Both the position numbers and the translations under genes were made by a program. A DNA stretch of 37,553 bases from Halothiobacillus sp. (GTDB taxonomy: Bacteria; Pseudomonadota; Gammaproteobacteria; Halothiobacillales; Halothiobacillaceae), in assembly GCA_024635755.1 (NCBI GenBank), contig JAGXIF010000009.1:1-37553 (forward strand). The letters are read 5' to 3'. The notes under the pieces are model-generated. The model had not been told where the DNA came from. It was given only the letters and a program-made list of their open reading frames with translations, and ran no database searches. Numbering within the stretch: position 1 is the first letter of the stretch; each line of letters starts with the position of its first letter. Below, one piece after another: positions 25,509 to 37,400 of the stretch.

Positions 25509-25579
25509 CTAAGGGGTCTACCTTGGGGTGCGTTGTTGCTTGCCCGACTGGCAAGAAGGCCTGCAATCGGCCACGATAG

Positions 25580-25852
25580 GGGAACCTCTGAACAAATGCG
25601 ATATCACTCTGGCTTGGCGAGCCGTTCGTAATCAAGGCGCGGCGTCGCTGGCGTGCCGGTGGCCACGTCAAGACGGCGCAACGCCGAGCACGGGCGGCTG
25701 GCTCGCCAAGCCCCGCAGAGCGGCTCTTGAGCCGAGCATCTGCGGCGTTGCCGTCCTTGGTAAAGGGAATCACCCTTCCACGGCGGACGAGCGCCTTGCA
25801 TCTGCCCGGCTCAAGATGCGCAGAGCGGTATCGCATTTGCTCAGAGGTTCCC
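25580..25852. mobile_element. MITE-like element with 32-bp terminal inverted repeats
   Basis: Left end 25580-25611 (begins GGGAACCTCTGAACAAATGC) and right end 25821-25852 are inverted repeats matching at 29 of 32 positions by hand alignment. Inside, a perfect 13-bp inverted pair GGCTTGGCGAGCC (25611-25623) / GGCTCGCCAAGCC (25700-25712) adds a nested stem. There is no credible coding sequence, so the 273-bp unit looks like a non-autonomous element mobilised by a transposase encoded elsewhere. I found no clear target-site duplication at the edges. The family is not assigned; the ends resemble IS5-type termini only loosely. Confidence 0.7.
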
Positions 25853-25879
25853 TGAAGGCGACTAGAATACCGAAAGGAA

Positions 25880-26079: not shown

Positions 26080-26598
26080 ATGTCCGACAAACCGCATCAG
26101 GACCACGAGCACAGCGAAACCTACGAGGCATTGCGCCACGGCTACTATCAGCTTCTCGAGCGCGTCTATGCTCGCTTGCTCGACGAAACTGGCGATCAAC
26201 CCGCCGACCGAAAGCGCCTGGCCGAGCTCGCCGAGGAAGAGTCCCGAACCCTGGACCAGGAGGGCTTGCGCGAGGAAATCGTCGAGGCGGTCAAGGATGA
26301 CCTGGAGCATACCCGCGAAGCGCTGGCCTCCGGCGGGCAAGGCGTGCGCGAGACCCTGCACGACTGGGCGGGCGATATCGGCGCCAAGCTGCTATCCATC
26401 GCCGATCACACCGATGTGACCTTGGAGCAGATCCGCCTCGACGCCGAGCGCCATCGTCCCCGCGAGTGGGTGGCCGGGCACATCACCAGCCCCAAGCGCC
26501 TCAAGTGCGTGGATTGCGGGGCAATCCTGCACCACGACACCTTCGGCCCGCTCCCCAAGTGCCCCGAGTGCGGTGGGCAGTCGTTCCGCCGCGCCTGA
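26080..26598 (+). CDS. Zinc-ribbon-containing protein (DUF1451-like)
   Basis: 172 aa. A helical, acidic N-terminal part (YQLLERVYARLLDE, then EEIVEAVKDDLEHTREALAS) precedes a C-terminal four-Cys zinc ribbon LKCVDCGAILHHDTFGPLPK and CPECGG. This architecture matches the DUF1451 zinc-ribbon proteins of gammaproteobacteria, whose function is unknown. Soluble. The ATG at 26080 has GGAG about 10 nt upstream; longer frames run through the repeat element and were rejected. It is the last gene before the direct repeat that bounds the RuBisCO module. Confidence 0.88.
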   Translation: MSDKPHQDHEHSETYEALRHGYYQLLERVYARLLDETGDQPADRKRLAELAEEESRTLDQEGLREEIVEAVKDDLEHTREALASGGQGVRETLHDWAGDIGAKLLSIADHTDVTLEQIRLDAERHRPREWVAGHITSPKRLKCVDCGAILHHDTFGPLPKCPECGGQSFRRA

Positions 26599-26618: not shown

Positions 26619-26735
26619 AAGGGCGGCTCAGCGCCGACTGAACAACCGCGGATTGGCGTGAAGAAACGCGGCTATCCACTGCTCGAGAAACGACTTGCCT
26701 ACCGCCACCCTGAGATAGCCGTAGCCCAGCACGGC
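26619..26735. repeat. Direct repeat, left copy, flanking the RuBisCO module
   Basis: 117 bp, same orientation as 32893-33009, 110 of 117 positions identical by hand alignment and no gaps. It covers the 3' end of the membrane-protein gene found intact at 32902-33564. The two copies bracket cbbO, cbbQ, cbbM, cbbR and a glycosyltransferase remnant. Confidence 0.9.
26628..26735 (-). pseudogene. 3' fragment of the DUF2238-like membrane protein gene
   Basis: The fragment still reads in frame for the last 35 residues and stop: AVLGYGYLRVAVGKSFLEQW, then IAAFLHANPRLFSRR. The intact gene at 32902-33564 has the same end with S to N and V to A changes. Four of the six differing codons are synonymous, suggesting that the two copies diverged as functional genes before this one was truncated. 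The rest of the gene is absent; cbbO begins its stop codon 31 bp further on. Confidence 0.85.
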
Positions 26736-26766
26736 TATCTACCACACGCGCCCATGTGCCCGAATA

Positions 26767-29037
26767 TCAGCCGGTGATCTGCATAAACAGCCGTGGCAGC
26801 GCCTCGGGCAGGCGCTCGATGCGGTCAAGGATCGTGTAGTGGTGGCCGAATATCTCGCGCACGTAGGCATCCGCCCGCGGGTCGAGGTGGATGCAGTAGG
26901 TGAACACGCCTTCGGCATCCAACTCCTTGACCGCCTGGCGGGCATCGGCCGTCAGGCGGTGGGGGTCGCGCACGTCCACATCGTGGGGCTCACCGTCGGT
27001 CAGTACCAGCAGCAACTTCTTGTCGCTGTCTCGATGGGCGAGAAAGTGCCCAGCGTGGCGCAAAGCCGCTCCCATGCGGGTGGACAGGCCCGCCTCAACG
27101 ACGGCCAGGCGGGCCTTCACCTCCATTCCCCAGTGCTCGTCGAAACCCTTGATGTGGCGGTAGCGGACCTCGTGACGGGTGTTGGAGTCGAATCCGGCGA
27201 TGGCCAAGGGGTCGCCCAAGGCTTCCACGGCCTCGGCGAGCAGGGAGACCGCCTCTTGGCTGAGCTCCAGGATCGTCTGGCTCGACCCCTCGGGCTGCTC
27301 AGCGATGGAGGCCGACAGGTCCACCAGCAACGAGACGCTGATGTCGCGCTCGGCGTGCCGGTGGCTCATGTTGATGCGCGGGTCAGGCTCGACTCCGCTC
27401 CGTCGGTCGATCATGGCGCGAATGGCCACGTCCAGATCGAGCTCAGCGCCCTCCTCCTGGTAGCGGATCCGCTCCCGGTTCTGGGGTTTCAGGAGGTCTA
27501 CGAGCTGGCGGAGCTGCCGGGAAATCCCCTCATGCTTTTCCAGCAGACGGTCGACGTGATCCGGCTGCCCGGCGGGATGCAGGGCATCGAAGACGCTGAC
27601 CCAGTCCGGGCGGTAAAGCCCGCCCTCCGAATCCCATTCGGGATAGAGCCGCGGCGGCAGGGCGTAGTCTCGGCCCGGTTCCTCGGCCTGGCTGGAACGG
27701 GCCTCCCGGTCGAACAGCTCCTCCTCGTCGCCTTCCTCGATGAACCGCCAGAGATGGCGGTTGTCGTCGCGGAATTCCACCCGCTCGGGCGGGAACCAGA
27801 CCTCGGCGAAGGCATCCGACGGCCGGCGGCTGCGGGCCATGAATCCCACCCCGAGCTCGACCATGTCCGCCGTTCGCGTGTCGCCCTCACGCATCCGCTG
27901 GTGGAAGCGCTCGGTGAACGCGTTCACCTCCGGGTCGGCGTAACCGTGATCCCGGGGATCGAGCAGGGCGAGGGAGAGCATCATCAGGCGGTGATTCACG
28001 CAGGACTGGCGCGTCCCATCGCAGTCGTCCTCCGCCACCCGGGGATGCAGGGCATGGAAAATCCGGCACAGACCCGGATAGCGTTCCATCGCCAGGTATT
28101 CCACCCGGGCATCCTCGAAGACCTCCATGGCCAGGCGCTGCATGGGGCTGTAGTTGTCGGCGACGATCGTCCCGCTCCACTCCAGGTGCGCCATCATGTG
28201 GGCGAGCAACGCACGGTAGCGGTCGATGCCGGGAATGCCGTCGTGATCGTCGAAGAGGTCCGGCAGCCGCAGGCCATGCTCGTCGAAGTACGGCCGCTGG
28301 GGCGTCTCGCTGTCAAGCGTCGGGTACGGCACCAGGGGCTCGTCGACCGCCCACAGGGCCTGCAGGTAGTAGCCCAGCCGGCGCTCGTTGTCGGCCAGCA
28401 GGGTCCCGTGCCGCTCGCGCTGGAGCATGGTGCGACTGTCCGCCGACTTCAGGGTAAAGTAGGCCTTCTGGGCATCCGGGTCGTTGGCATGCGCCCGGGC
28501 GCCGAAGCGTGCCCAGTTGGCCAGCCCCGCCAGATTGAGCCAGGCCAGCACCCGGGGCGCGGTCTCGAAGAAGCGATCCAGCACCGGGCTGGGATGGATG
28601 GCATGGTGCCCGTGGATCGACGGCGTGGTCTCGCGCATGATCTCCAGGCCGAGATCGAGGAAACCCTGCATGGCCTCCCCGCATTCCAGCCGCCGGGCCA
28701 CCGGCAGCATGGACTGCAGGAACGGCACCACTGCCGGGGCGTTGGTGGACGTGGCCAGCTTGTAGGCATAGTGGGCCAGGTCGCCGATCATGGCCTCACC
28801 CACCAGCGCGACGGTATCCGGCCCCTCCTCCAAATAGATCAGTACCGACTCGACGCCCTGCCCCATCATGCACAGCAGATTGGCGCCCTGGAGGAAGTCG
28901 TCCATGGCCTTGTCCGAGCCCAGCTTCTCCAGGGCATTGCTCAGGCAGGGATCGAAGATCTCCCGGGCCTGGTCGAAGCCGCACTTGAAGCGGTCGCGAT
29001 AGTCCTCGCGGGTGGATTCGAAGGGCATGCGTGCCAT
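26767..29037 (-). CDS. cbbO: RuBisCO activase subunit CbbO (VWA domain)
   Basis: 756 aa. CbbO is the adaptor of the CbbQ-CbbO activase: it docks on RuBisCO while the CbbQ ring uses ATP to pull inhibitory sugar phosphates from the active site. The long helical N-terminal part (about 1-560) is the CbbO-specific region; a von Willebrand A domain fills about 565-750, with the metal (MIDAS) motif DLSAS (D573-S577), a STRMGAALRHAGH segment and LVLTDGEPHD. The start is ATG 29037 (or 29028), 7 bp after cbbQ. Paired with form II cbbM, this is the CbbQ2/CbbO2 type. Confidence 0.94.
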   Translation of the reverse strand: MARMPFESTREDYRDRFKCGFDQAREIFDPCLSNALEKLGSDKAMDDFLQGANLLCMMGQGVESVLIYLEEGPDTVALVGEAMIGDLAHYAYKLATSTNAPAVVPFLQSMLPVARRLECGEAMQGFLDLGLEIMRETTPSIHGHHAIHPSPVLDRFFETAPRVLAWLNLAGLANWARFGARAHANDPDAQKAYFTLKSADSRTMLQRERHGTLLADNERRLGYYLQALWAVDEPLVPYPTLDSETPQRPYFDEHGLRLPDLFDDHDGIPGIDRYRALLAHMMAHLEWSGTIVADNYSPMQRLAMEVFEDARVEYLAMERYPGLCRIFHALHPRVAEDDCDGTRQSCVNHRLMMLSLALLDPRDHGYADPEVNAFTERFHQRMREGDTRTADMVELGVGFMARSRRPSDAFAEVWFPPERVEFRDDNRHLWRFIEEGDEEELFDREARSSQAEEPGRDYALPPRLYPEWDSEGGLYRPDWVSVFDALHPAGQPDHVDRLLEKHEGISRQLRQLVDLLKPQNRERIRYQEEGAELDLDVAIRAMIDRRSGVEPDPRINMSHRHAERDISVSLLVDLSASIAEQPEGSSQTILELSQEAVSLLAEAVEALGDPLAIAGFDSNTRHEVRYRHIKGFDEHWGMEVKARLAVVEAGLSTRMGAALRHAGHFLAHRDSDKKLLLVLTDGEPHDVDVRDPHRLTADARQAVKELDAEGVFTYCIHLDPRADAYVREIFGHHYTILDRIERLPEALPRLFMQITG

Positions 29038-29044
29038 CCCCGGC

Positions 29045-29857
29045 TCAACCGAAGACGGTGTCGATGGCGTGGTGCAGGGTGTCCCGGATATCGGCATCGT
29101 CGGTCAGCGGCACGACCATGGCCATGCGGGCCGCCTCCGCCGGCTCCATGCCCTTGCCGATCAGCGTCGCCGCGTAGACCAGCAGGCGGGTGGAAATGCC
29201 CTCGGTCAGGCCGTGCCCCTTGAGGTTGCGTGCCGTGTCGGCGACCTGCACCAGCTTGCCGGTCGTGACCTCGTCCAGGCCGGTCTCCCCCATGATGATC
29301 TCCCGTTCCACGCCGGCAGCCGGGTAGTCGAACTCGAACCCGGCGAAGCGCTGCTTGGTGGACTGTTTGAGGTCCTTCATCAGGCTCTGATAGCCGGGAT
29401 TGTAGGAGATCACCAACTGGAAGTCCGGATGCGCCTCGACCAGTTCGCCCTTCTTGTCCAGCGGCAGGTTGCGGCGGTGATCGGTCAGCGGGTGGATGAC
29501 CACGGTCGTGTCCTGGCGGGCCTCGACCACCTCGTCGAGATAGCAGATCGCCCCATGACGCGCGGCCTGGGTCAGGGGACCATCCACCCAGCGGGTTCCA
29601 TCCGCATCGAGCAGGAATCGCCCGACCAGATCGGCGGCGGTCATGTCCTCATTGCAGGCCACGGTAACCAGTGGCCTGTCGAGCTTCCAGGCCATGTACT
29701 CGACGAATCGCGACTTCCCGCAGCCCGTCGGCCCCTTGATCATCACCGGCATGCGGGCCGAATAGGCGGTCTCATAGGCCGAAACCTCGCGGCCTTGCGC
29801 CTGGTAGAAGGGTTCCTCGGTAACGAGGTACTGCTCGATCTCGAATCGTTCGTTCAT
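29045..29857 (-). CDS. cbbQ: RuBisCO activase AAA+ ATPase CbbQ
   Basis: 270 aa. MoxR-type AAA+ protein; hexamers with one CbbO restore RuBisCO activity. Walker A GPTGCGKS is at residues 42-49, Walker B ICYLDE ends at D108-E109, the sensor region has VISYNPGYQS (150-158), and the arginine-finger region STKQRFAGFEFDYP follows. The start ATG 29857 is preceded by a modest ribosome site; the frame continues upstream into cbbM and was rejected. It is separated from cbbM by 154 bp with two strong hairpins, so it is probably expressed below cbbM. Confidence 0.95.
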   Translation of the reverse strand: MNERFEIEQYLVTEEPFYQAQGREVSAYETAYSARMPVMIKGPTGCGKSRFVEYMAWKLDRPLVTVACNEDMTAADLVGRFLLDADGTRWVDGPLTQAARHGAICYLDEVVEARQDTTVVIHPLTDHRRNLPLDKKGELVEAHPDFQLVISYNPGYQSLMKDLKQSTKQRFAGFEFDYPAAGVEREIIMGETGLDEVTTGKLVQVADTARNLKGHGLTEGISTRLLVYAATLIGKGMEPAEAARMAMVVPLTDDADIRDTLHHAIDTVFG

Positions 29858-29948
29858 TGACTGGCCTGTCTGCAAGAAATGCGTTCCATCCATTCCCCAA
29901 CGCGCGCATGACCTCGCGCGGCACTCGGGAATGGGGAGGAAAGAAAAG

Positions 29949-29970
29949 ACCGCTCGCAAGGGAGCGGTCC
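29949..29970 (-). terminator. Rho-independent terminator/attenuator between cbbM and cbbQ
   Basis: On the minus strand an 8-bp perfect stem GACCGCTC/GAGCGGTC with a 6-nt loop is followed at once by TTTTCTTT (29941-29948). This is a good intrinsic terminator. Read-through would set the cbbM to cbbQO ratio. Confidence 0.65.
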
Positions 29971-29978
29971 GATGAAGG

Positions 29979-30002
29979 ACGGGCGGGATTGGCCGCCCGT
30001 CG
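29979..30002 (-). other. Second stem-loop just after cbbM
   Basis: A 9-bp perfect stem GACGGGCGG/CCGCCCGTC with a 6-nt loop lies 9 nt past the cbbM stop and directly before the terminator. It has no T-tract of its own. It is a likely 3'-end stabiliser for the abundant cbbM message. Confidence 0.5.
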
Positions 30003-30011
30003 TCGCCGGGC

Positions 30012-31397
30012 TTACTTGTGCACGCCCAGCTTTTCCCGCCAGCCGGGGAAGATCGCGTCGGCGTCGTGCGGGAAGGACTCGAACGCCCGGGCAAATTCCT
30101 TGTGCTCCTTGGCGAACTCGATCGGGTCGGCGCCGGCTTTCCAGCACTCGTAGGCCTGACGCAGGGAAATAGCGCCGGCGGCCGGGGAGTCGATGTGGCC
30201 GTAGGCGCCGCCACCGGCAGTATTGATCACGTTGGCATGGCCCAGATTCTCGAAGAAGCCGGGCAGGCGCAGCGCGTTCATGCCACCGGAGATGATCGGC
30301 GTGGTCGGCTTCATGCCGTGCCACTCCTGGTGGTAGACCGGGCCGTCCGCGGAATCGCGCTCGATCATGTAGGCGATGTTGCGGTCGTCCTTGCCGCCTT
30401 CCATCTTGCCGTAGCCCATGGTGCCCACGTGGATGCCGGACGCGCCCTGCAGACGGGACATCTTGGCCAGCACGAAGGCGGTGTAGCCGCGCTTGGCGGA
30501 AGGCGAGGTCACGGCACCGTGACCGGCACGGTGGTAGTGCAGGTACTGGTTCGGATACTGGCGACGGGCGGTGGTGATCATGCCCGGGCCACCGACGTAG
30601 CCGTCGACCAGGAAGGCCACCTTGTCGGCGTCCTCGCCGAAGGTCTCCAGGATGAAGTCGGCACGCGCGCACATCTCGAAGTGGTCGTCGGCGGTGATGT
30701 TCGCGGAGAACAACTTCGCCTCGCCGGTCTCGTCCTGGGCGCGTTTCATGGCGTCGGCGACCAACGGGATGGTCTCCCTCATCGGCGCGAAGGTCTGGTT
30801 GCCCTGCGGCTCGTCGTTCTTGATGAAGTCACCGCCCAGCCAGAACTCGTAGGCCGCCTGCGCGAAGGGCTCGGGACGCAGCCCCAACTTGGGCTTGATG
30901 ATGGTACCGGCAACATAGCCGCCATCGACCACGGGGCGGTCCAAAATGCGCCACAGGTCGGAGATGTCCTTGGACGGACCATCGAACAGCTCGATGACAC
31001 GCTTGGGGACGTAGAAGTCGACCATCTTGGCGTATTCGACGTCGCCCATGCCCTGGTTGTTACCGATGGCCAGGGTGAGGAAGGAGACGATCATCATCCG
31101 ACCGTCGATCATGTTGCGGTCGAACAGCTCCAGCGGATAAGCAATCCGCATGTCCTCGTTGGCCTCGTCGATGTGATAGACGAGCGCGTCGACACCCTTG
31201 GTGAAGTCGTCGGTGGTGGACACTTCGACATTGGTGCCGGTCGACGATTCGGCCGCGAAGTGGGCGGCGGTCGCCAGATAGCCATGCCCCGCGTTGGGCT
31301 TCATCTGATAGGCGACCAAGATGTGCTTGCCACCGGCAATCAGGTCTTCTTCTTTGAGGGTCAGGTCAGCGTAGCGGCTGGATTGATCGTTAGCCAT
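30012..31397 (-). CDS. cbbM: Ribulose-1,5-bisphosphate carboxylase/oxygenase, form II
   Basis: 461 aa, normal for form II, which works without small subunits. It fixes CO2 onto ribulose bisphosphate in the Calvin cycle. Catalytic signatures: K168 in [10 protein letters not shown], the carbamylated Lys193 with metal ligands D195/E196 in [42 protein letters not shown] (flexible-loop Lys) and [19 protein letters not shown]. The ATG at 31397 has GGAGG seven nt upstream; the ATG at 31403 touches that site and is unlikely. No other structural RuBisCO gene is in the window. It is divergent from cbbR and followed by cbbQ and cbbO. Confidence 0.98.
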
Positions 31398-31479
31398 GAG
31401 CATCCTCCGGATATTCTATGAATCGACGGCGGTTCGCCCTAGGCAAACCGCGAGACGGAAAACACCATATTCCATGTGG

Positions 31480-31509
31480 TTTATAAGTAACATTCATTAT
31501 TGGTGATAA
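31480..31509 (-). promoter_or_regulatory. Candidate cbbM promoter with CbbR-type operator
   Basis: In the AT-rich cbbM-cbbR gap, the minus strand has a -35-like TTATCA (31504-31509) and a -10-like TATAAA (31480-31485), 18 bp apart. The -35 box lies inside a perfect dyad TTAT-N5-ATAA (31497-31509) that is also a T-N11-A LysR-type site. Activation of cbbM by CbbR from this site is inferred from family behaviour. Confidence 0.5.
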
Positions 31510-31543
31510 GGTTTCTTAGTTTTCCTGATAATTAGATTTTCTT

Positions 31544-32461
31544 ATGCTAAGACTAACCCTGCGACAACTCCGTATCCTCGAGGCCGTGGCTCACCACGGG
31601 AGCTTTTCCCGGGCCAGCAAGGACGTGCATCTCACCCAGCCGGCGGTCTCCATGCAGATCAAGCAATTGGAGCAATCGCTCGGGATATCGCTGTTCGAGC
31701 ACGTCGGCAAACGCATCCACTTGACCGAGGCCGGGCAGGAAACGCTGGAGACCAGCCGTGCCATCGGGCGCGAGCTCGACAACCTGGAGCATTCGCTCGC
31801 CGACCTGCGCGGGCTCAAAGGGGGCACGCTGAAGGTATCGGTGGCCAGCACGGCCAGCTATTTCGCCGCACGGCTAATGGCCCTGTTCCGCCAGGTGCAT
31901 CCGGATATCCGCATCCGCCTGAACGTGGTCAACCGCGCCACCCTGCTCGACCATCTGGCGAACAACAGCATCGATCTCGCCCTGATGGGGCATCCGCCCG
32001 ATGGCCTCAACCTCACCGCCCAGCCTTTCATGGAGAACCCCTTGGTGGTCATCGCCGCGCCCAGCCACCCCTTGGCCGGCATTCGCGACATCCCGCTGAC
32101 CCGGCTCGCGGACGAGCCGCTGGTAGGAAGGGAACCGGGATCAGGCACACGCAGTGCCGTGGAGAAGGTATTCGCCGAACATGGCCTGACACTCAAGGTG
32201 GCCATGGAGATGAACAAGAACGAGGCGATCAAGCAGGCTGTGGAGGCCGGGTTGGGCCTGGGCGTGGTCTCGCTGCACATCGTGCAGTCGGAACTGGTTT
32301 CCGGAGAGTTGTGCGTGCTGGATGTCCAAGGCTTTCCCCTGATGCGCCAGTGGTACCTGGTCCAGCGGGAAGGCAAGCGTCCCGCCCCTGCCGCCCGGGC
32401 GTTCTCCGACTTCGTACTGACCGAGGCCAAACGGGCGGCACGGCTTGACGGGGTCCAGTGA
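31544..32461 (+). CDS. cbbR: LysR-family transcriptional regulator CbbR
   Basis: 305 aa. The N-terminal winged helix-turn-helix (LTLRQLRILEAVAHHGSFSR, then LTQPAVSMQIKQLEQSLGISL) is followed by a linker helix and a periplasmic-binding-like effector domain (LKVSVASTASYFAARLMALF to about 295). CbbR proteins activate Calvin cycle operons and sense metabolites such as RuBP or NADPH. Divergent placement next to cbbM supports the name. Start ATG at 31544, only 147 bp from the cbbM start, so one operator region can serve both. A broken paralogue fragment lies near 37.2 kb. Confidence 0.93.
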   Translation: MLRLTLRQLRILEAVAHHGSFSRASKDVHLTQPAVSMQIKQLEQSLGISLFEHVGKRIHLTEAGQETLETSRAIGRELDNLEHSLADLRGLKGGTLKVSVASTASYFAARLMALFRQVHPDIRIRLNVVNRATLLDHLANNSIDLALMGHPPDGLNLTAQPFMENPLVVIAAPSHPLAGIRDIPLTRLADEPLVGREPGSGTRSAVEKVFAEHGLTLKVAMEMNKNEAIKQAVEAGLGLGVVSLHIVQSELVSGELCVLDVQGFPLMRQWYLVQREGKRPAPAARAFSDFVLTEAKRAARLDGVQ

Positions 32462-32641
32462 GGATCGGACAAACCCTCGTAACGCTCGAGGTCCACCGTG
32501 GGTAGGGAAGGTCCGTAGCAACTGATATCAGGCAGAAAACACCCCGAAAATGTCGACAGCCGCCAGGCCCCGGGCGCTCGATCCGAGCCCGGGCGGGATG
32601 GGTCAAGCGGACCCTCTTCGCGGGGAAGCTGAAACCTGCCG

Positions 32642-32893
32642 TCCCTGGAGGCGGGCATCGAGGCGCGACCGGAACCGGAATCCGTGCTTGCCGGCGACGG
32701 CCCGCGGTGCGGCGAACTCGAACGGCTGGGGGAGCGATGCCCTGATCTGCGCCTGACCGGCTGGCCGGACCGCCGCGCCCGGAGAGAGGAGATGAACGCC
32801 ACCGACCTGCTGGTCCTCCCCTCGCACCAGGAAGCCTTCAGGACCGTCGCATTGTAGGAGATGGAAGGCGGCCGCCCGGCTCTGGGTACCGCA
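32642..32893 (+). pseudogene. Remnant of a group 1 (GT4-like) glycosyltransferase
   Basis: Within the 440-bp gap after cbbR, one frame reads ESVLAGDGPRCGELERLG, then RLTGWPDR, then ATDLLVLPSHQEAFRTVAL, a TAG stop at 32855, and EMEGGRPALGTA. This is the donor-sugar half of a GT4 glycosyltransferase (AGDGP, TGW, LVLPS..EAF..VAL, EM..GRP.LGT). No start codon, N-terminal half or C-terminal end is present, and the frame is broken, so it is a dead fragment. It ends exactly where the right direct repeat begins. In 32462-32641 I see nothing but a GC-rich imperfect dyad near 32565-32595. Confidence 0.7.
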
Positions 32894-33009
32894 AGGGCGG
32901 CTCAGCGCCGGTTGAACAACCGAGGATTGGCGTGAAGAAACGCGGCTATCCACTGCTCGAGAAAAGACTTTCCTGCCGCCACCCTGAGATAGCCGTAGCC
33001 CAGGACGGC
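32893..33009. repeat. Direct repeat, right copy, flanking the RuBisCO module
   Basis: Partner of 26619-26735. This copy is part of the intact membrane-protein gene (its last 36 codons plus 9 bp beyond the stop). The spacing between copies is 6274 bp start to start. Confidence 0.9.
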
Positions 33010-33564
33010 GATCACCGCGGCGCCCACCGTATCGACGACCAGATCCAACATCGTATCCGTCAGCCCTGACGGGTCATCGAGCATCGCTTTCTGCATGTTT
33101 GTGCCCACCATCTGGTCCATGGCGAACTCGAATATCTCCCAGAGCGCACCCACCCCGACCGCAAACATGAAGGCGAAAAACGCCACGAAACCCGGCGTCA
33201 TGTGGAACCGGAGATTCTTCTTTTCGTTCAGGATGTATACCAGCAGAAAGCCGAAGATGCCCAGCAGGAAACCCGATGCCACGTGCAGCACCAAGTCCCA
33301 CCACCAGAAACGCGTGTAGTACCCCTGCACCTCTCCGAGAAACAGCGAAGCGAAGATGAACAGGGTGGCCAACAGCTTGAATTCCGCAGGTATGAACACC
33401 TCGAAACGCCTGGACATCAGCACCGGCGCCAAGGTCAGCACCAGAATGACAAGCGTCATCACAGCGATTAGCCACAGCCCTTCCCAGAGTGCGAACGCCA
33501 GTTCGGCAAGCATGATCAGCTGGATGAACAGGGTGACGCGTTGATGGATACGTGTGTTTCGCAT
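32902..33564 (-). CDS. Polytopic membrane protein, DUF2238/YjdF-like
   Basis: 220 aa. About six hydrophobic segments: LFIQLIMLAELAFALWEGLW, LIAVMTLVILVLTLAPVL, FKLLATLFIFASLFLG, LVLHVASGFLLGIFGFLLVY, FVAFFAFMFAVGVGALWEIF and DLVVDTVGAAVIAVLGYGYL. Conserved-looking WDLVLHVASG, GALWEIFEFAMDQ and DTMLDLVVDTVGA resemble DUF2238-type proteins. I am fairly sure of the membrane topology and less sure of the family. Function unknown. Start ATG 33564 with CGGAG four nt upstream. Its 3' end is duplicated at 26628-26735 on the other side of the RuBisCO module. Confidence 0.85.
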   Translation of the reverse strand: MRNTRIHQRVTLFIQLIMLAELAFALWEGLWLIAVMTLVILVLTLAPVLMSRRFEVFIPAEFKLLATLFIFASLFLGEVQGYYTRFWWWDLVLHVASGFLLGIFGFLLVYILNEKKNLRFHMTPGFVAFFAFMFAVGVGALWEIFEFAMDQMVGTNMQKAMLDDPSGLTDTMLDLVVDTVGAAVIAVLGYGYLRVAAGKSFLEQWIAAFLHANPRLFNRR

Positions 33565-33598: not shown

Positions 33599-34636
33599 TC
33601 ACGTGCGCGAGCGGGCCGCGGACCCCGGCGGCACCGCGATGCCGCGCAGCAGCCGGCCGAGAATGTCGGAGGCGGTCAGGACCCGAGGGTGATCGATCCA
33701 CAACAGGATGACATCCTCCTCCAGGATGTCATCCCCCAGCTCCGGCGGTTTGACGTGGAAACGTCGTATCAGGTCGCCGAGCTGACGGGCGCCGTCGCGC
33801 AGGATGATGGGCCGGTGACAGTGTCGGTAGGGGTTGAAGCGGGCGGGCTCGAACAGGGCCTCGCGGAGGAAGTCGTCCGAACTGATCACGAGCTGCGGCG
33901 AACCGCCCTGGTCGACGAGGACCACCCAGCGCTTGCGGGAGCTGTCGATCCGGCGCAGGAACGGATCCTCGGGCGTGGGCTCGATGGGTGGAAACACGGG
34001 GCGCCCGTTCTCGAACGTCATCTGGATGACACTTTCCGGGTCGATCGGCTCGCCCTCGTCATCCAGTGGCACATCGTCGATATCGAGAAAATTGAGCGCC
34101 CCCTGCCCCTCCACGCGCGAGATCTCGGTTCCGGACGTTTCCATGTGCAGTTGGATCATCCGACGCAAATCGCGTTCGCGCAGATAGGTTATCGGCTCGC
34201 CGCCCAGCCAGCGGTCCAACAACCAGGCGCTGGGACGCGCCACCGGGTAGAAGACGAATTGGTAGAAGCGCAGCACGGGCGCCAGGAGGCCGGATACCTT
34301 GAGTGCATGCCGGCTGAAGTAGGCCTGGGGCATGATCTCGGCGAAGATGGTGATAACCACCGTCGAGAATAGGAAGGCCGCCAGTCCGGTCAGCAGCGAT
34401 CCCGAGACCAGCGCCAGCAGCACATTGACGCTGACGTTGCCCCACAGGATGGTCACGAGCGCAAAATTGGAATCCTCGCGCAGACGCAATACCCGGCTCG
34501 CCAGCGAATTCCCCCTATTGACTTCAACCTGAAGTTCGAGCCGGCTCAGCGAGAAGAGTCCCAGGTTCAGTCCCGAGAATATGGCCGACTGGGAAAGACA
34601 GATCAGGATCACGATCCAGGAGGCGAGCGTGATCAT
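33599..34636 (-). CDS. CNNM/DUF21-domain membrane protein with CBS region
   Basis: 345 aa. The N-terminal DUF21 transmembrane domain (LASWIVILICLSQSAIFSGL, then NLGLFSLSRLELQVEVNRGN; TVVITIFAEIMPQAYFSRHA) is the CNNM/CorB signature, followed by a cytoplasmic CBS-pair-like region (about 240-330: RRIDSSRKRWVVLVDQGGSP, then RVLTASDILGRLL). Such proteins are linked to Mg2+ or Co2+ efflux; the role here is inferred. The C-terminal CorC/HlyC domain found in longer relatives is missing. Start 34636 has AAGGA six nt upstream; the upstream extension to 34798 has none. Confidence 0.88.
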   Translation of the reverse strand: MITLASWIVILICLSQSAIFSGLNLGLFSLSRLELQVEVNRGNSLASRVLRLREDSNFALVTILWGNVSVNVLLALVSGSLLTGLAAFLFSTVVITIFAEIMPQAYFSRHALKVSGLLAPVLRFYQFVFYPVARPSAWLLDRWLGGEPITYLRERDLRRMIQLHMETSGTEISRVEGQGALNFLDIDDVPLDDEGEPIDPESVIQMTFENGRPVFPPIEPTPEDPFLRRIDSSRKRWVVLVDQGGSPQLVISSDDFLREALFEPARFNPYRHCHRPIILRDGARQLGDLIRRFHVKPPELGDDILEEDVILLWIDHPRVLTASDILGRLLRGIAVPPGSAARSRT

Positions 34637-34875
34637 GCCGGTTCCTTGCCGATGATCCAGGCCCCTGAAAAAAAATGCTGGCATATCCTGGGCGCGCTGG
34701 CTGCGTGGCGTCCGGATTCGGTCAGTGAGTTCATCGGATCGTGTCCAGCGTGTCCATTTGGCGGGGTAAATCTCTGGAGGCGCGGTGCGACCAGTCACCG
34801 GTGGACCGGGACGGTCGCTCGTGAGGATTGATCAGTCAGGCGCGCGCACGACACTCGAACGCGCTTGAGTTGTTT

Positions 34876-35201: not shown

Positions 35202-35780
35202 TCATCCGCCGACGTGGTGCTTACCCTCCACATGGACCGTGGTCGCCCTCGGCCCGTCGATCCCTTGCACCTCGGCAAAGCGCACGGACTCGCCGCCCTC
35301 GAGCTTGTCGAAGTCGTAATCGACCACGCTGTTCCGGCTGAACGAGACCTCCCGCCCGTCGGCAGACAGGATGACGCCGTAATCAGCCGCTGGCGCAATC
35401 TCGATGATGCGGCCATGTGGCGGCGTCTCGTGCTGCTTCACGTCGCCTCTCTGCTTCGCCGCATAGGCCTGCAGCTGACGCTCCATCGCGTCGAAGGCAT
35501 CACGAACGGCCACATAGGGGTCTTCGTGGGCGTGCTTGTTACCGGGATCACGGCTCACCACCAGTTCCTTGTTGGGCACGGTGACATCAAGGCGGACGTT
35601 GTACAGGTTGCCCTTGTTATGGCGGAGATGATCGGCCTCGACCAGAACCCGGCACCGCATAATGCGGTCGAAGTAGCGGGTCAGCTTGTCAGTCCTCTCG
35701 CGAATCTTGTCCTCGAGAACCTGAGACTGATCCATGTTGTGGAATACGACCTCAACCGGTAGGCGTATTTCTCCATTCAT
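35202..35780 (-). CDS. Ribosome hibernation factor HPF/RaiA family with C-terminal cold-shock-like domain
   Basis: 192 aa. Residues 1-110 show the HPF/RaiA (S30AE) pattern: VEVVFHNMDQSQVLEDKIRE, LTRYFDRIMRCRVLVE, YNVRLDVTVPNKELVVSRDP, and YVAVRDAFDAMERQLQ. Residues 120-190 resemble a cold-shock/S1-like domain (GRIIEIAPAADYGVILSADG, EVSFSRNSVVDYDFDKLEGG, VRFAEVQGIDGPRATTVHV). This is not the long-HPF dimerisation domain. It probably binds the small subunit in starvation and adds an RNA-binding unit. A strong AGGAGG lies seven nt before the ATG at 35780. No rpoN neighbours. Confidence 0.9.
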   Translation of the reverse strand: MNGEIRLPVEVVFHNMDQSQVLEDKIRERTDKLTRYFDRIMRCRVLVEADHLRHNKGNLYNVRLDVTVPNKELVVSRDPGNKHAHEDPYVAVRDAFDAMERQLQAYAAKQRGDVKQHETPPHGRIIEIAPAADYGVILSADGREVSFSRNSVVDYDFDKLEGGESVRFAEVQGIDGPRATTVHVEGKHHVGG

Positions 35781-37149: not shown

Positions 37150-37400
37150 CCGACCAGCAAACCGCGAACAAGGCCCGGATCGGGCTGAACCATCGGAAAC
37201 GGCTTCTCCAAGCACAGTCTCGAGCTCAAAGTCGCCATGGAGAGACGCAAGACCGAGTCCATCAAGCAGGCCGTCGAAGCGGAAGGTAGGGGGAAATGGT
37301 CTCCCTTCCCATCGTCCAGCGCGAGGACAAGCGCCTCTGCCCAGCCGCGCGCGCCTTCGCCGAGTCCGCGCTCAACGGGAGGAAGCACGCCTCCAGCTCG
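37150..37400 (+). pseudogene. Broken cbbR-like LysR regulator fragment
   Basis: One frame reads PGSG, a stop, then TIGNGFSKHSLELKVAMERR and KTESIKQAVEA; the intact CbbR has PGSGTRSAVEKVFAEHGLTL, KVAME and NEAIKQAVEAG at the same place. After a frameshift the next frame gives MVSLPIVQREDKRLCPAARA and FAESAL, matching CbbR VVSLHIVQSE joined directly to VQREGKRPAPAARAFSDF. About 35 codons are thus missing between two similar VQ(S/R)E sites. The DNA-binding half is absent. Sequence is clearly diverged from the local cbbR, so it is an old paralogue rather than a fresh copy. Edges are approximate. Confidence 0.7.

What the first reader, a model, noticed from the sequence alone, without database searches (positions are those of the whole stretch)
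26619..33009. The form II RuBisCO module is bracketed by 117-bp direct repeats that are the 3' end of a membrane-protein gene
The two copies (26619-26735 and 32893-33009) are in the same orientation and match at 110 of 117 positions. The right copy is the 3' end of an intact gene; the left one is an in-frame 35-codon remnant. Between them lie cbbO, cbbQ, cbbM, cbbR and a dead glycosyltransferase piece. This is the layout left when DNA enters by recombination at the 3' end of a gene and the gene is rebuilt. Four of the six differing codons are synonymous, so the copies seem to come from two once-functional homologues, which favours acquisition from another strain over a local duplication. The repeats could also let the whole CO2-fixation module be lost by one recombination. 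No integrase is visible, so homologous recombination is my preferred route.
Basis: partly seen in the sequence, partly recalled or inferred. Interest (0 to 1): 0.75.

Follow-up and report, generated by a model that had tools for sequence, protein, structure and literature searches.

The report
Old repeat-bracketed RuBisCO gene cluster
A second, optional set of CO2-fixing genes sits between a whole gene and a leftover copy of that gene's tail in a sulfur-oxidising bacterium; the arrangement is old and shared with two relatives, while other relatives lack the genes and two of them show a clean, uninterrupted site.

Summary
The repeat is real: 110 of 117 bases match, and the window has no other direct repeat of that length. 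The genus is Guyparkeria. Among 11 genus genomes, three carry the form II module (cbbO-cbbQ-cbbM, divergent cbbR), each at this site. All three share a dead glycosyltransferase scrap between cbbR and the intact membrane gene, and a 3' stub of that gene beyond the cbbO end. Two relatives (G008, G009) show the predicted empty site. Carriers are not a clade (AU p 6.7e-29), and the module's synonymous divergence is close to that of core genes. So recent acquisition from another strain is not supported. Best reading: one old insertion at the membrane gene's 3' end, inherited, then lost 3-5 times depending on topology, with the two repeat copies in this genome homogenised since. Recombination between the repeats would leave exactly the empty sites seen, but nothing here shows it happening, and never-occupied sites would look the same. 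One insertion followed by spread within the genus remains possible. Direct repeats around an optional gene block are a known kind; the patchy form II RuBisCO of this genus is the more useful part.

The parts
26080..26598 (+). zinc-ribbon (DUF1451) gene, left anchor of the locus, conserved in the genus
   Evidence: PF07295 E 9.8e-18; matched in 11 of 11 genus genomes, in G004 only weakly and with stops
26619..26754 (-). left repeat copy: 3' stub of the membrane gene (codons 185-220 plus stop, stop codon at 26628-26630)
26767..29097 (-). cbbO (VWA-domain protein; activase partner by its place beside cbbQ); start codon not settled
   Evidence: PF00092, no NCBIfam family; 80-85% aa identity to G002/G007
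29045..29857 (-). cbbQ (AAA+ activase)
   Evidence: PF07728 and PF08406 CbbQ_C
30012..31403 (-). cbbM, form II RuBisCO large subunit
   Evidence: NF010002 E 4.3e-274 over its cut-off; 84-88% aa to the form II copies of 12 other family genomes
31544..32461 (+). cbbR, LysR-type regulator, divergent from cbbM
   Evidence: PF00126/PF03466; best NCBIfam match NF045990 CbbR E 5.7e-84, below its cut-off
32636..32892 (+). dead group-1 glycosyltransferase scrap; homologous stretch at the same place in G002 and G007
32893..33026 (-). right repeat copy, 3' end of the intact gene and 9 bases beyond its stop
32902..33564 (-). intact membrane-protein gene (220 aa; no Pfam or NCBIfam family at E<=0.001)
   Evidence: 83-92% aa in six other genus genomes
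33599..34798 (-). CNNM-domain membrane gene, right neighbour; broken in G008
   Evidence: PF01595
34890..35135 (-). fragmentary match to a CBS-domain gene that is continuous in G005, G006 and G008
   Evidence: PF00571 for the G005 copy
35202..35780 (-). S30AE/HPF-type gene; a homologue lies beside cbbO in G002
   Evidence: PF02482
35996..36487 (-). CIA30-domain gene, right anchor in 9 of the 10 genomes with the locus (G008's contig ends before it)
   Evidence: PF08547

Best explanation
The repeats are the old scar of one insertion. In an early Guyparkeria ancestor a form II RuBisCO cluster (cbbR-cbbM-cbbQ-cbbO, with a piece of a glycosyltransferase gene attached) entered next to the 3' end of a membrane-protein gene, leaving an intact gene on one side and a roughly 125-bp 3' stub on the other. 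The cluster was then inherited down the main lineages and lost several times. In this genome the stub and the gene end were made alike again later (gene conversion or equivalent). RecA-type recombination between the two copies would delete module and scrap and merge the copies in one step, leaving the membrane gene whole beside the zinc-ribbon gene, as seen in G008 and G009. Shown: repeats, shared boundaries, empty sites, non-monophyly of carriers, matched divergence. Inferred: the single origin, the direction (loss), the conversion and the deletion route.
For: Form II cbbM is in 3 of 11 genus genomes, always at this locus. Shared right boundary: cbbR / dead glycosyltransferase / membrane gene in G000, G002 and G007. 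Shared left boundary: 3' stubs in all three; the G000 and G007 stubs end 125 and 128 bp upstream of the stop (offsets), and the G007 stub groups with its own gene end (bootstrap 98). Empty sites: zinc-ribbon gene facing the membrane gene in G008 and G009; the join 'left flank + stub + right gene body' aligns to G008 over 764 of 767 bases, 671 of 762 identical, 10 gap columns. In G007 the stub follows the rhodanese gene, as the whole gene does in G001 and G003. Carriers are rejected as a clade: AU p 6.7e-29 (six genes), 1.6e-17 (parE+gyrB+rpoB, where G000 has parE only), 5.5e-7 (parE). Module dS against core dS: 0.596/0.573, 0.556/0.546, 0.365/0.279 for the three carrier pairs (three of the four core genes, proA, holA and leuS, lie in this window). 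The cbbM tree splits G000 from G002+G007 with other family members as outgroup. Stub and gene end in G000 differ by 8 of 111 with equal branch lengths (0.040, 0.039), too alike for an untouched relic as old as the insertion.
Against: Counting events alone, three to five losses are more than one insertion plus one transfer. The tree root is weakly supported (63-65). No intermediate or deletion junction was seen; one genome per species is held. Joining the two G000 copies has support 53 only. The G002 stub is closer to other species' genes (90 of 110 to G001) than to its own (86 of 110), its match runs on through a tandem repeat and so does not share the 125-128 bp end, and a CBS remnant and the HPF gene lie between it and cbbO: its left side was rearranged or formed otherwise. 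No second stub was found between HPF and cbbO in G002 (p 0.08). The protein-level match of the scrap is weak in the other carriers (E 0.003 in G007, 0.15 in G002). cbbO is more diverged between G002 and G007 than the other module genes (pS 0.40), and with it the module's deep-to-shallow ratio, 1.58 (1.43-1.78), overlaps core, 2.01 (1.75-2.25), only at the edge. G005, G006 and G010 lack the membrane gene as well, so simple repeat-mediated loss does not explain them.
Confidence: 0.6

Rival explanations
1. One insertion in one Guyparkeria lineage, followed by lateral spread of the occupied locus within the genus by homologous recombination in the flanking genes and the membrane gene.
For: Needs two gains instead of 3-5 losses on the trees; the locus is a variable region in the genus; the G002 left side is rearranged.
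Against: Module dS is close to core dS in all three carrier pairs, so a transfer must be about as old as the core split or come from an unsampled lineage; the G000 membrane gene is sister to G008's with support 100, and G008-type bases occur in every segment of it, so no donor tract is visible.
Confidence: 0.25
2. The stub in this genome is a recent local duplication of the gene end, independent of the stubs in G002 and G007.
For: Left and right copies are each other's closest match (103 of 111) and equally diverged; the G002 stub does not share their end point.
Against: Three carriers having a stub of the same gene end on the same side, two ending within 3 bp of each other in the gene, would be a coincidence.
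Confidence: 0.08
3. Recent acquisition from another strain by recombination at the gene's 3' end, the two copies being donor and recipient alleles.
For: Patchy presence; empty site in the sister genome G008.
Against: Copies are nearest to each other, neither is nearest to another lineage; boundaries shared with two other species; no compositional difference; divergence close to core.
Confidence: 0.05
4. Site-specific integration of a mobile element using the gene's 3' end as attachment site.
For: Direct repeat of a gene's 3' end at both sides of the block.
Against: No Phage_integrase match on this contig (5 matches elsewhere in the genome; other recombinase families and the other carriers were not searched); no tRNA nearby; repeat far longer than usual attachment sites (recalled).
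Confidence: 0.02

Closest known systems
Repeat-mediated deletions between strains of Haloquadratum walsbyi (PMC3119063; passages read)
   Same: A block present in one genome is bounded by direct repeats, with a single copy at the corresponding place in the other genome; four cases there have repeats over 20 bp (22, 43, 139, 734 bp).
   Different: There mostly repeats under 20 bp between two strains of one species; here a gene end of 111-136 bp, between species.
Merodiploids made by natural transformation in Streptococcus pneumoniae (PMC3784515; abstract and section list seen)
   Same: Duplications bordered by repeats, formed by recombination with a DNA fragment that is partly repeated in the chromosome.
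   Different: There tandem duplications of about 100 to 900 kb; here a 6-kb block and a partial gene copy. Competence of Guyparkeria was not examined.
cbbR-cbbM-cbbQ-cbbO clusters of other genera of the family (Halothiobacillaceae by recall)
   Same: Same gene order and a divergent cbbR-like gene in 8 of 8 family loci fetched, out of 12 family genomes with form II.
   Different: In 4 of those 8 (G011, G013, G022, G025) a form I-type gene lies in the fetched stretch, and in G015 a second cbbR-like gene; none of the 8 stretches (17-19 kb) has the zinc-ribbon or membrane gene.

Membership tests
Optional gene block lost or gained through flanking direct repeats | Near-identical direct repeats at both ends of the block | tested here: met
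   110 of 117
Optional gene block lost or gained through flanking direct repeats | Relatives with one repeat copy and no block at the same place | tested here: met
   G008, G009; G001 and G003 likewise with a rhodanese gene between
Optional gene block lost or gained through flanking direct repeats | Recombination between the copies observed | not testable with these tools
   needs reads or cultures
Integrative element at a gene's 3' end | Integrase gene within or beside the block | tested here: not met
   no Phage_integrase match on contig C20; serine recombinases were not searched for
Form II RuBisCO (CbbM) | Match to the best NCBIfam RuBisCO model over its cut-off | tested here: met
   NF010002, 909 bits against a cut-off of 489; that this model stands for form II is recalled; form I copies match it at 31-36% only
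CbbQO activase pair | AAA+ CbbQ with CbbQ_C domain and VWA-domain CbbO adjacent | tested here: met
Recently acquired foreign DNA | Composition or divergence out of line with the host | tested here: not met
   GC 0.647 against 0.661 left and 0.610 right; GC3 0.82-0.87 against 0.71-0.88 in flanking genes; dS close to core

The most novel reading that the evidence does not exclude
The 3' stub is kept alike to the gene end by repeated gene conversion, and the pair works as a standing deletion device that lets Guyparkeria populations shed an expensive second RuBisCO in one scarless step, making form II CO2 fixation an inherited but disposable trait of the genus.
Probability: 0.12. Interest if true: 0.6.

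Novelty: new member of a known kind. Interest (0 to 1): 0.35.

Why it matters
It turns a suspected recent gene transfer into a testable case of an old, repeatedly lost CO2-fixation module. It also shows that some Guyparkeria carry a form II RuBisCO; the genus pangenome paper (PMC9032823, passages read) describes form I with carboxysomes, and 'form II' occurs 0 times in its main text. That makes the genus a natural comparison of strains with and without form II in the same locus background.

Tried and rejected
Recent transfer from another strain: disfavoured on shared boundaries, divergence and composition. The membrane gene as part of a travelling cbb cassette: among 77 loci outside the genus (75, with flanks up to 10 kb, and two with about 1.5 kb; one search kept the best 80 of 95), none has cbbM, cbbQ or cbbO at E<=1e-8; six have a distant LysR-type match only. 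A terminator hairpin kept whole only by the left copy looked suggestive (noted) but is not better than chance (z -1.55, 15 of 200 shuffles). A chimeric right gene with a donor 3' end: no clear break in which lineage's bases it carries. A second stub beside cbbO in G002: not found. Literature searches; no title or abstract start in those listings names this locus; only four papers were opened (PMC9032823, PMC6504805, PMC3119063, PMC3784515).

Rows dropped and mended: G004 (64% complete, parE branch near 1.9) was left out of the trees. In one search the parE rows that involve G003 and G008 rest on a wrong frame (corrected); the dS figures used come. Note 2 says 0 of 75 loci and gives slightly different G007 stub ends; the figures here (77 loci; 6339-6472 of L130) are. 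Note 2 also says that carriers are scattered with G007 alone; the larger gene sets pair G002 with G007.
Full report
Observation. The repeat is as described. Copies 26619-26735 and 32893-33009 match at 110 of 117 bases, extend to 121 nt at 93% and, with gaps, to 26754/33026 at 91%. The only other direct repeat in the window at E<=1e-3 is a 98-bp match between cbbR and the right end of the window, and the held assembly has no third copy. The right copy ends an intact 220-residue gene with no Pfam or NCBIfam family; that it is a membrane protein is read from its hydrophobic stretches, not from a call. The left copy is a stub, codons 185-220 and stop, with an in-frame stop just before it. Between them are cbbO, cbbQ, cbbM, a divergent cbbR and a glycosyltransferase scrap (PF13692).

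Where it is. Named contigs of the closest matches are Guyparkeria or 'Halothiobacillus sp.' MAGs; the window's genome is one of 11 held for the genus (G000-G010).

The locus in relatives. Form II cbbM is found in G000, G002 and G007, 3 of 11, each time here. The order in each genome, from the zinc-ribbon gene: G000 stub, cbbO-Q-M, cbbR, scrap, membrane gene, CNNM, CBS fragments, HPF, CIA30; G007 rhodanese gene, stub, cbbO-Q-M, cbbR, scrap, membrane gene, CIA30; G002 stub, CBS remnant, HPF, cbbO-Q-M, cbbR, scrap, membrane gene, CIA30. Without the module: G008 membrane gene, broken CNNM, CBS, HPF (contig end); G009 membrane gene, CIA30; G001 and G003 rhodanese gene, membrane gene, CIA30; G005 and G006 rhodanese gene, CBS, HPF, CIA30; G010 CIA30. 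Rhodanese and CBS are PF00581 and PF00571 for the G005 copies. G004 (64% complete) has no usable locus. In the seven module-free genomes the stretch from the zinc-ribbon gene to the next gene listed is on one contig, so absence there is not an assembly gap.

Shared boundaries. A stretch homologous to the scrap region lies between cbbR and the membrane gene in all three carriers (DNA matches of 69-80%; sequences). At protein level it matches at E 0.003 in G007 and 0.15 in G002, so in G002 it rests on the DNA. Stubs of the membrane gene's 3' end lie on the other side in all three (best scores G000 218, G002 145, G007 98, against maxima of 46, 52 and 50 in 200 shuffles each). The stubs of G000 and G007 end 125 and 128 bp from the stop, by the offsets; the G002 match runs further, through a tandem repeat. 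The five other stretches tested, including the one between HPF and cbbO in G002, gave nothing beyond chance (p 0.08-0.25). A shared scrap and shared stubs argue for one origin.

Age. Six core genes (parE, gyrB, rpoB, leuS, holA, proA; not all present in every genome) put G000 with G008 and G002 with G007, support 100 each. The three window-linked genes alone also pair G002 with G007, but join G001 to G003; parE alone puts G002 with G001 (83) and leaves G007 next to them. A tree with the three carriers as a clade is rejected in the three data sets (AU p 6.7e-29, 1.6e-17, 5.5e-7). Synonymous divergence of the four cbb genes is 0.596, 0.556 and 0.365 for G000-G002, G000-G007 and G002-G007, against 0.573, 0.546 and 0.279 for four core genes, three of which lie in this window. 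The ratio of deep to shallow distance is 1.58 (1.43-1.78) for the module, 2.17 (1.77-2.56) without cbbO, and 2.01 (1.75-2.25) for core. The lower figure comes with cbbO, whose 3' half is unusually diverged among all three. GC and GC3 are ordinary. So the module has been in these lineages about as long as they have been apart, or came from an equally distant unsampled one. If it was in the common ancestor, it was lost three times on the unlinked-gene tree and five on the six-gene tree (my count on the trees, rooted between G000+G008 and the rest as, where that root has support 63-65). Outside the genus, form II is in 12 of the 16 other family genomes. In the 8 loci fetched the cluster has the same order but neither the zinc-ribbon nor the membrane gene beside it; in 4 of the 8 it lies near a form I-type gene.

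The two copies. They differ at 8 of 111 positions, fewer than either differs from any other copy (13 or more), with branches of 0.040 and 0.039; the support for joining them in that short tree is only 53. Where G008 differs from G001, G002 and G009 together, the right copy has the G008 base at 8 of 17 sites and the left at 5 of 15. Neither looks like a foreign allele. A relic untouched since the insertion should be far more changed, as are those of G007 (75 of 100 to its own gene) and G002 (86 of 110). I infer later homogenisation.

Mechanism. Insertion beside a gene's 3' end with a partial copy is what recombination with DNA sharing that end can give; the original event is too old to resolve. 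Loss by recombination between copies would leave the left flank, one gene end and the gene body. That join aligns to G008 over 764 of 767 bases (671 of 762 identical, 10 gap columns) and to G009 over 720 of 767 (619 of 718, 6 gap columns). The same would be seen if those genomes had never had the module, so anatomy alone does not decide; the tree and divergences do, moderately. G005, G006 and G010, which lack the membrane gene too, need another explanation.

Known context. PMC9032823 (passages) and PMC6504805 (passages) describe form I RuBisCO with carboxysomes in Guyparkeria; 'form II' occurs 0 times in either main text. Repeat-bounded strain differences are known (PMC3119063, passages), as are repeat-bordered duplications by transformation (PMC3784515, abstract and section list). 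The system is a new case of a known kind.

Noticed in passing
window 25575-25857: A 283-bp stretch with 32-bp inverted repeats near its ends (91%) belongs to a dispersed repeat family: 8 matches in this genome, 4 to 47 in nine other genus genomes, none in G004 (40 candidates scored per genome, so counts near 40 are lower bounds). It looks like a MITE-like element (label recalled).
   Followed up: partly
G000:C39:20000-25200 (L164): The only form I large-subunit gene found in this genome is followed by a cbbQ and is 85% identical to the cbbL of relatives, whose copies in G002, G007 and G008 are 97-99.6% identical to G001's; it is nearer (90%) to a second copy in G010. The genome is 88% complete, so another copy may be missing from the assembly.
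   Followed up: partly
window 26767-27900 (3' half of cbbO): The 3' half of cbbO is more diverged among the three carriers (71-81% nt) than the 5' half (81-91%).
   Followed up: no
L129 (G002), beside the zinc-ribbon gene: In G002 the stub runs through a short tandem repeat into a partial CBS-domain gene, as if a deletion had fused two genes.
   Followed up: partly
window 32192-32287 and 37225-37319: cbbR matches a stretch at the right end of the window (73% over 98 bp), probably a second LysR-type gene.
   Followed up: no
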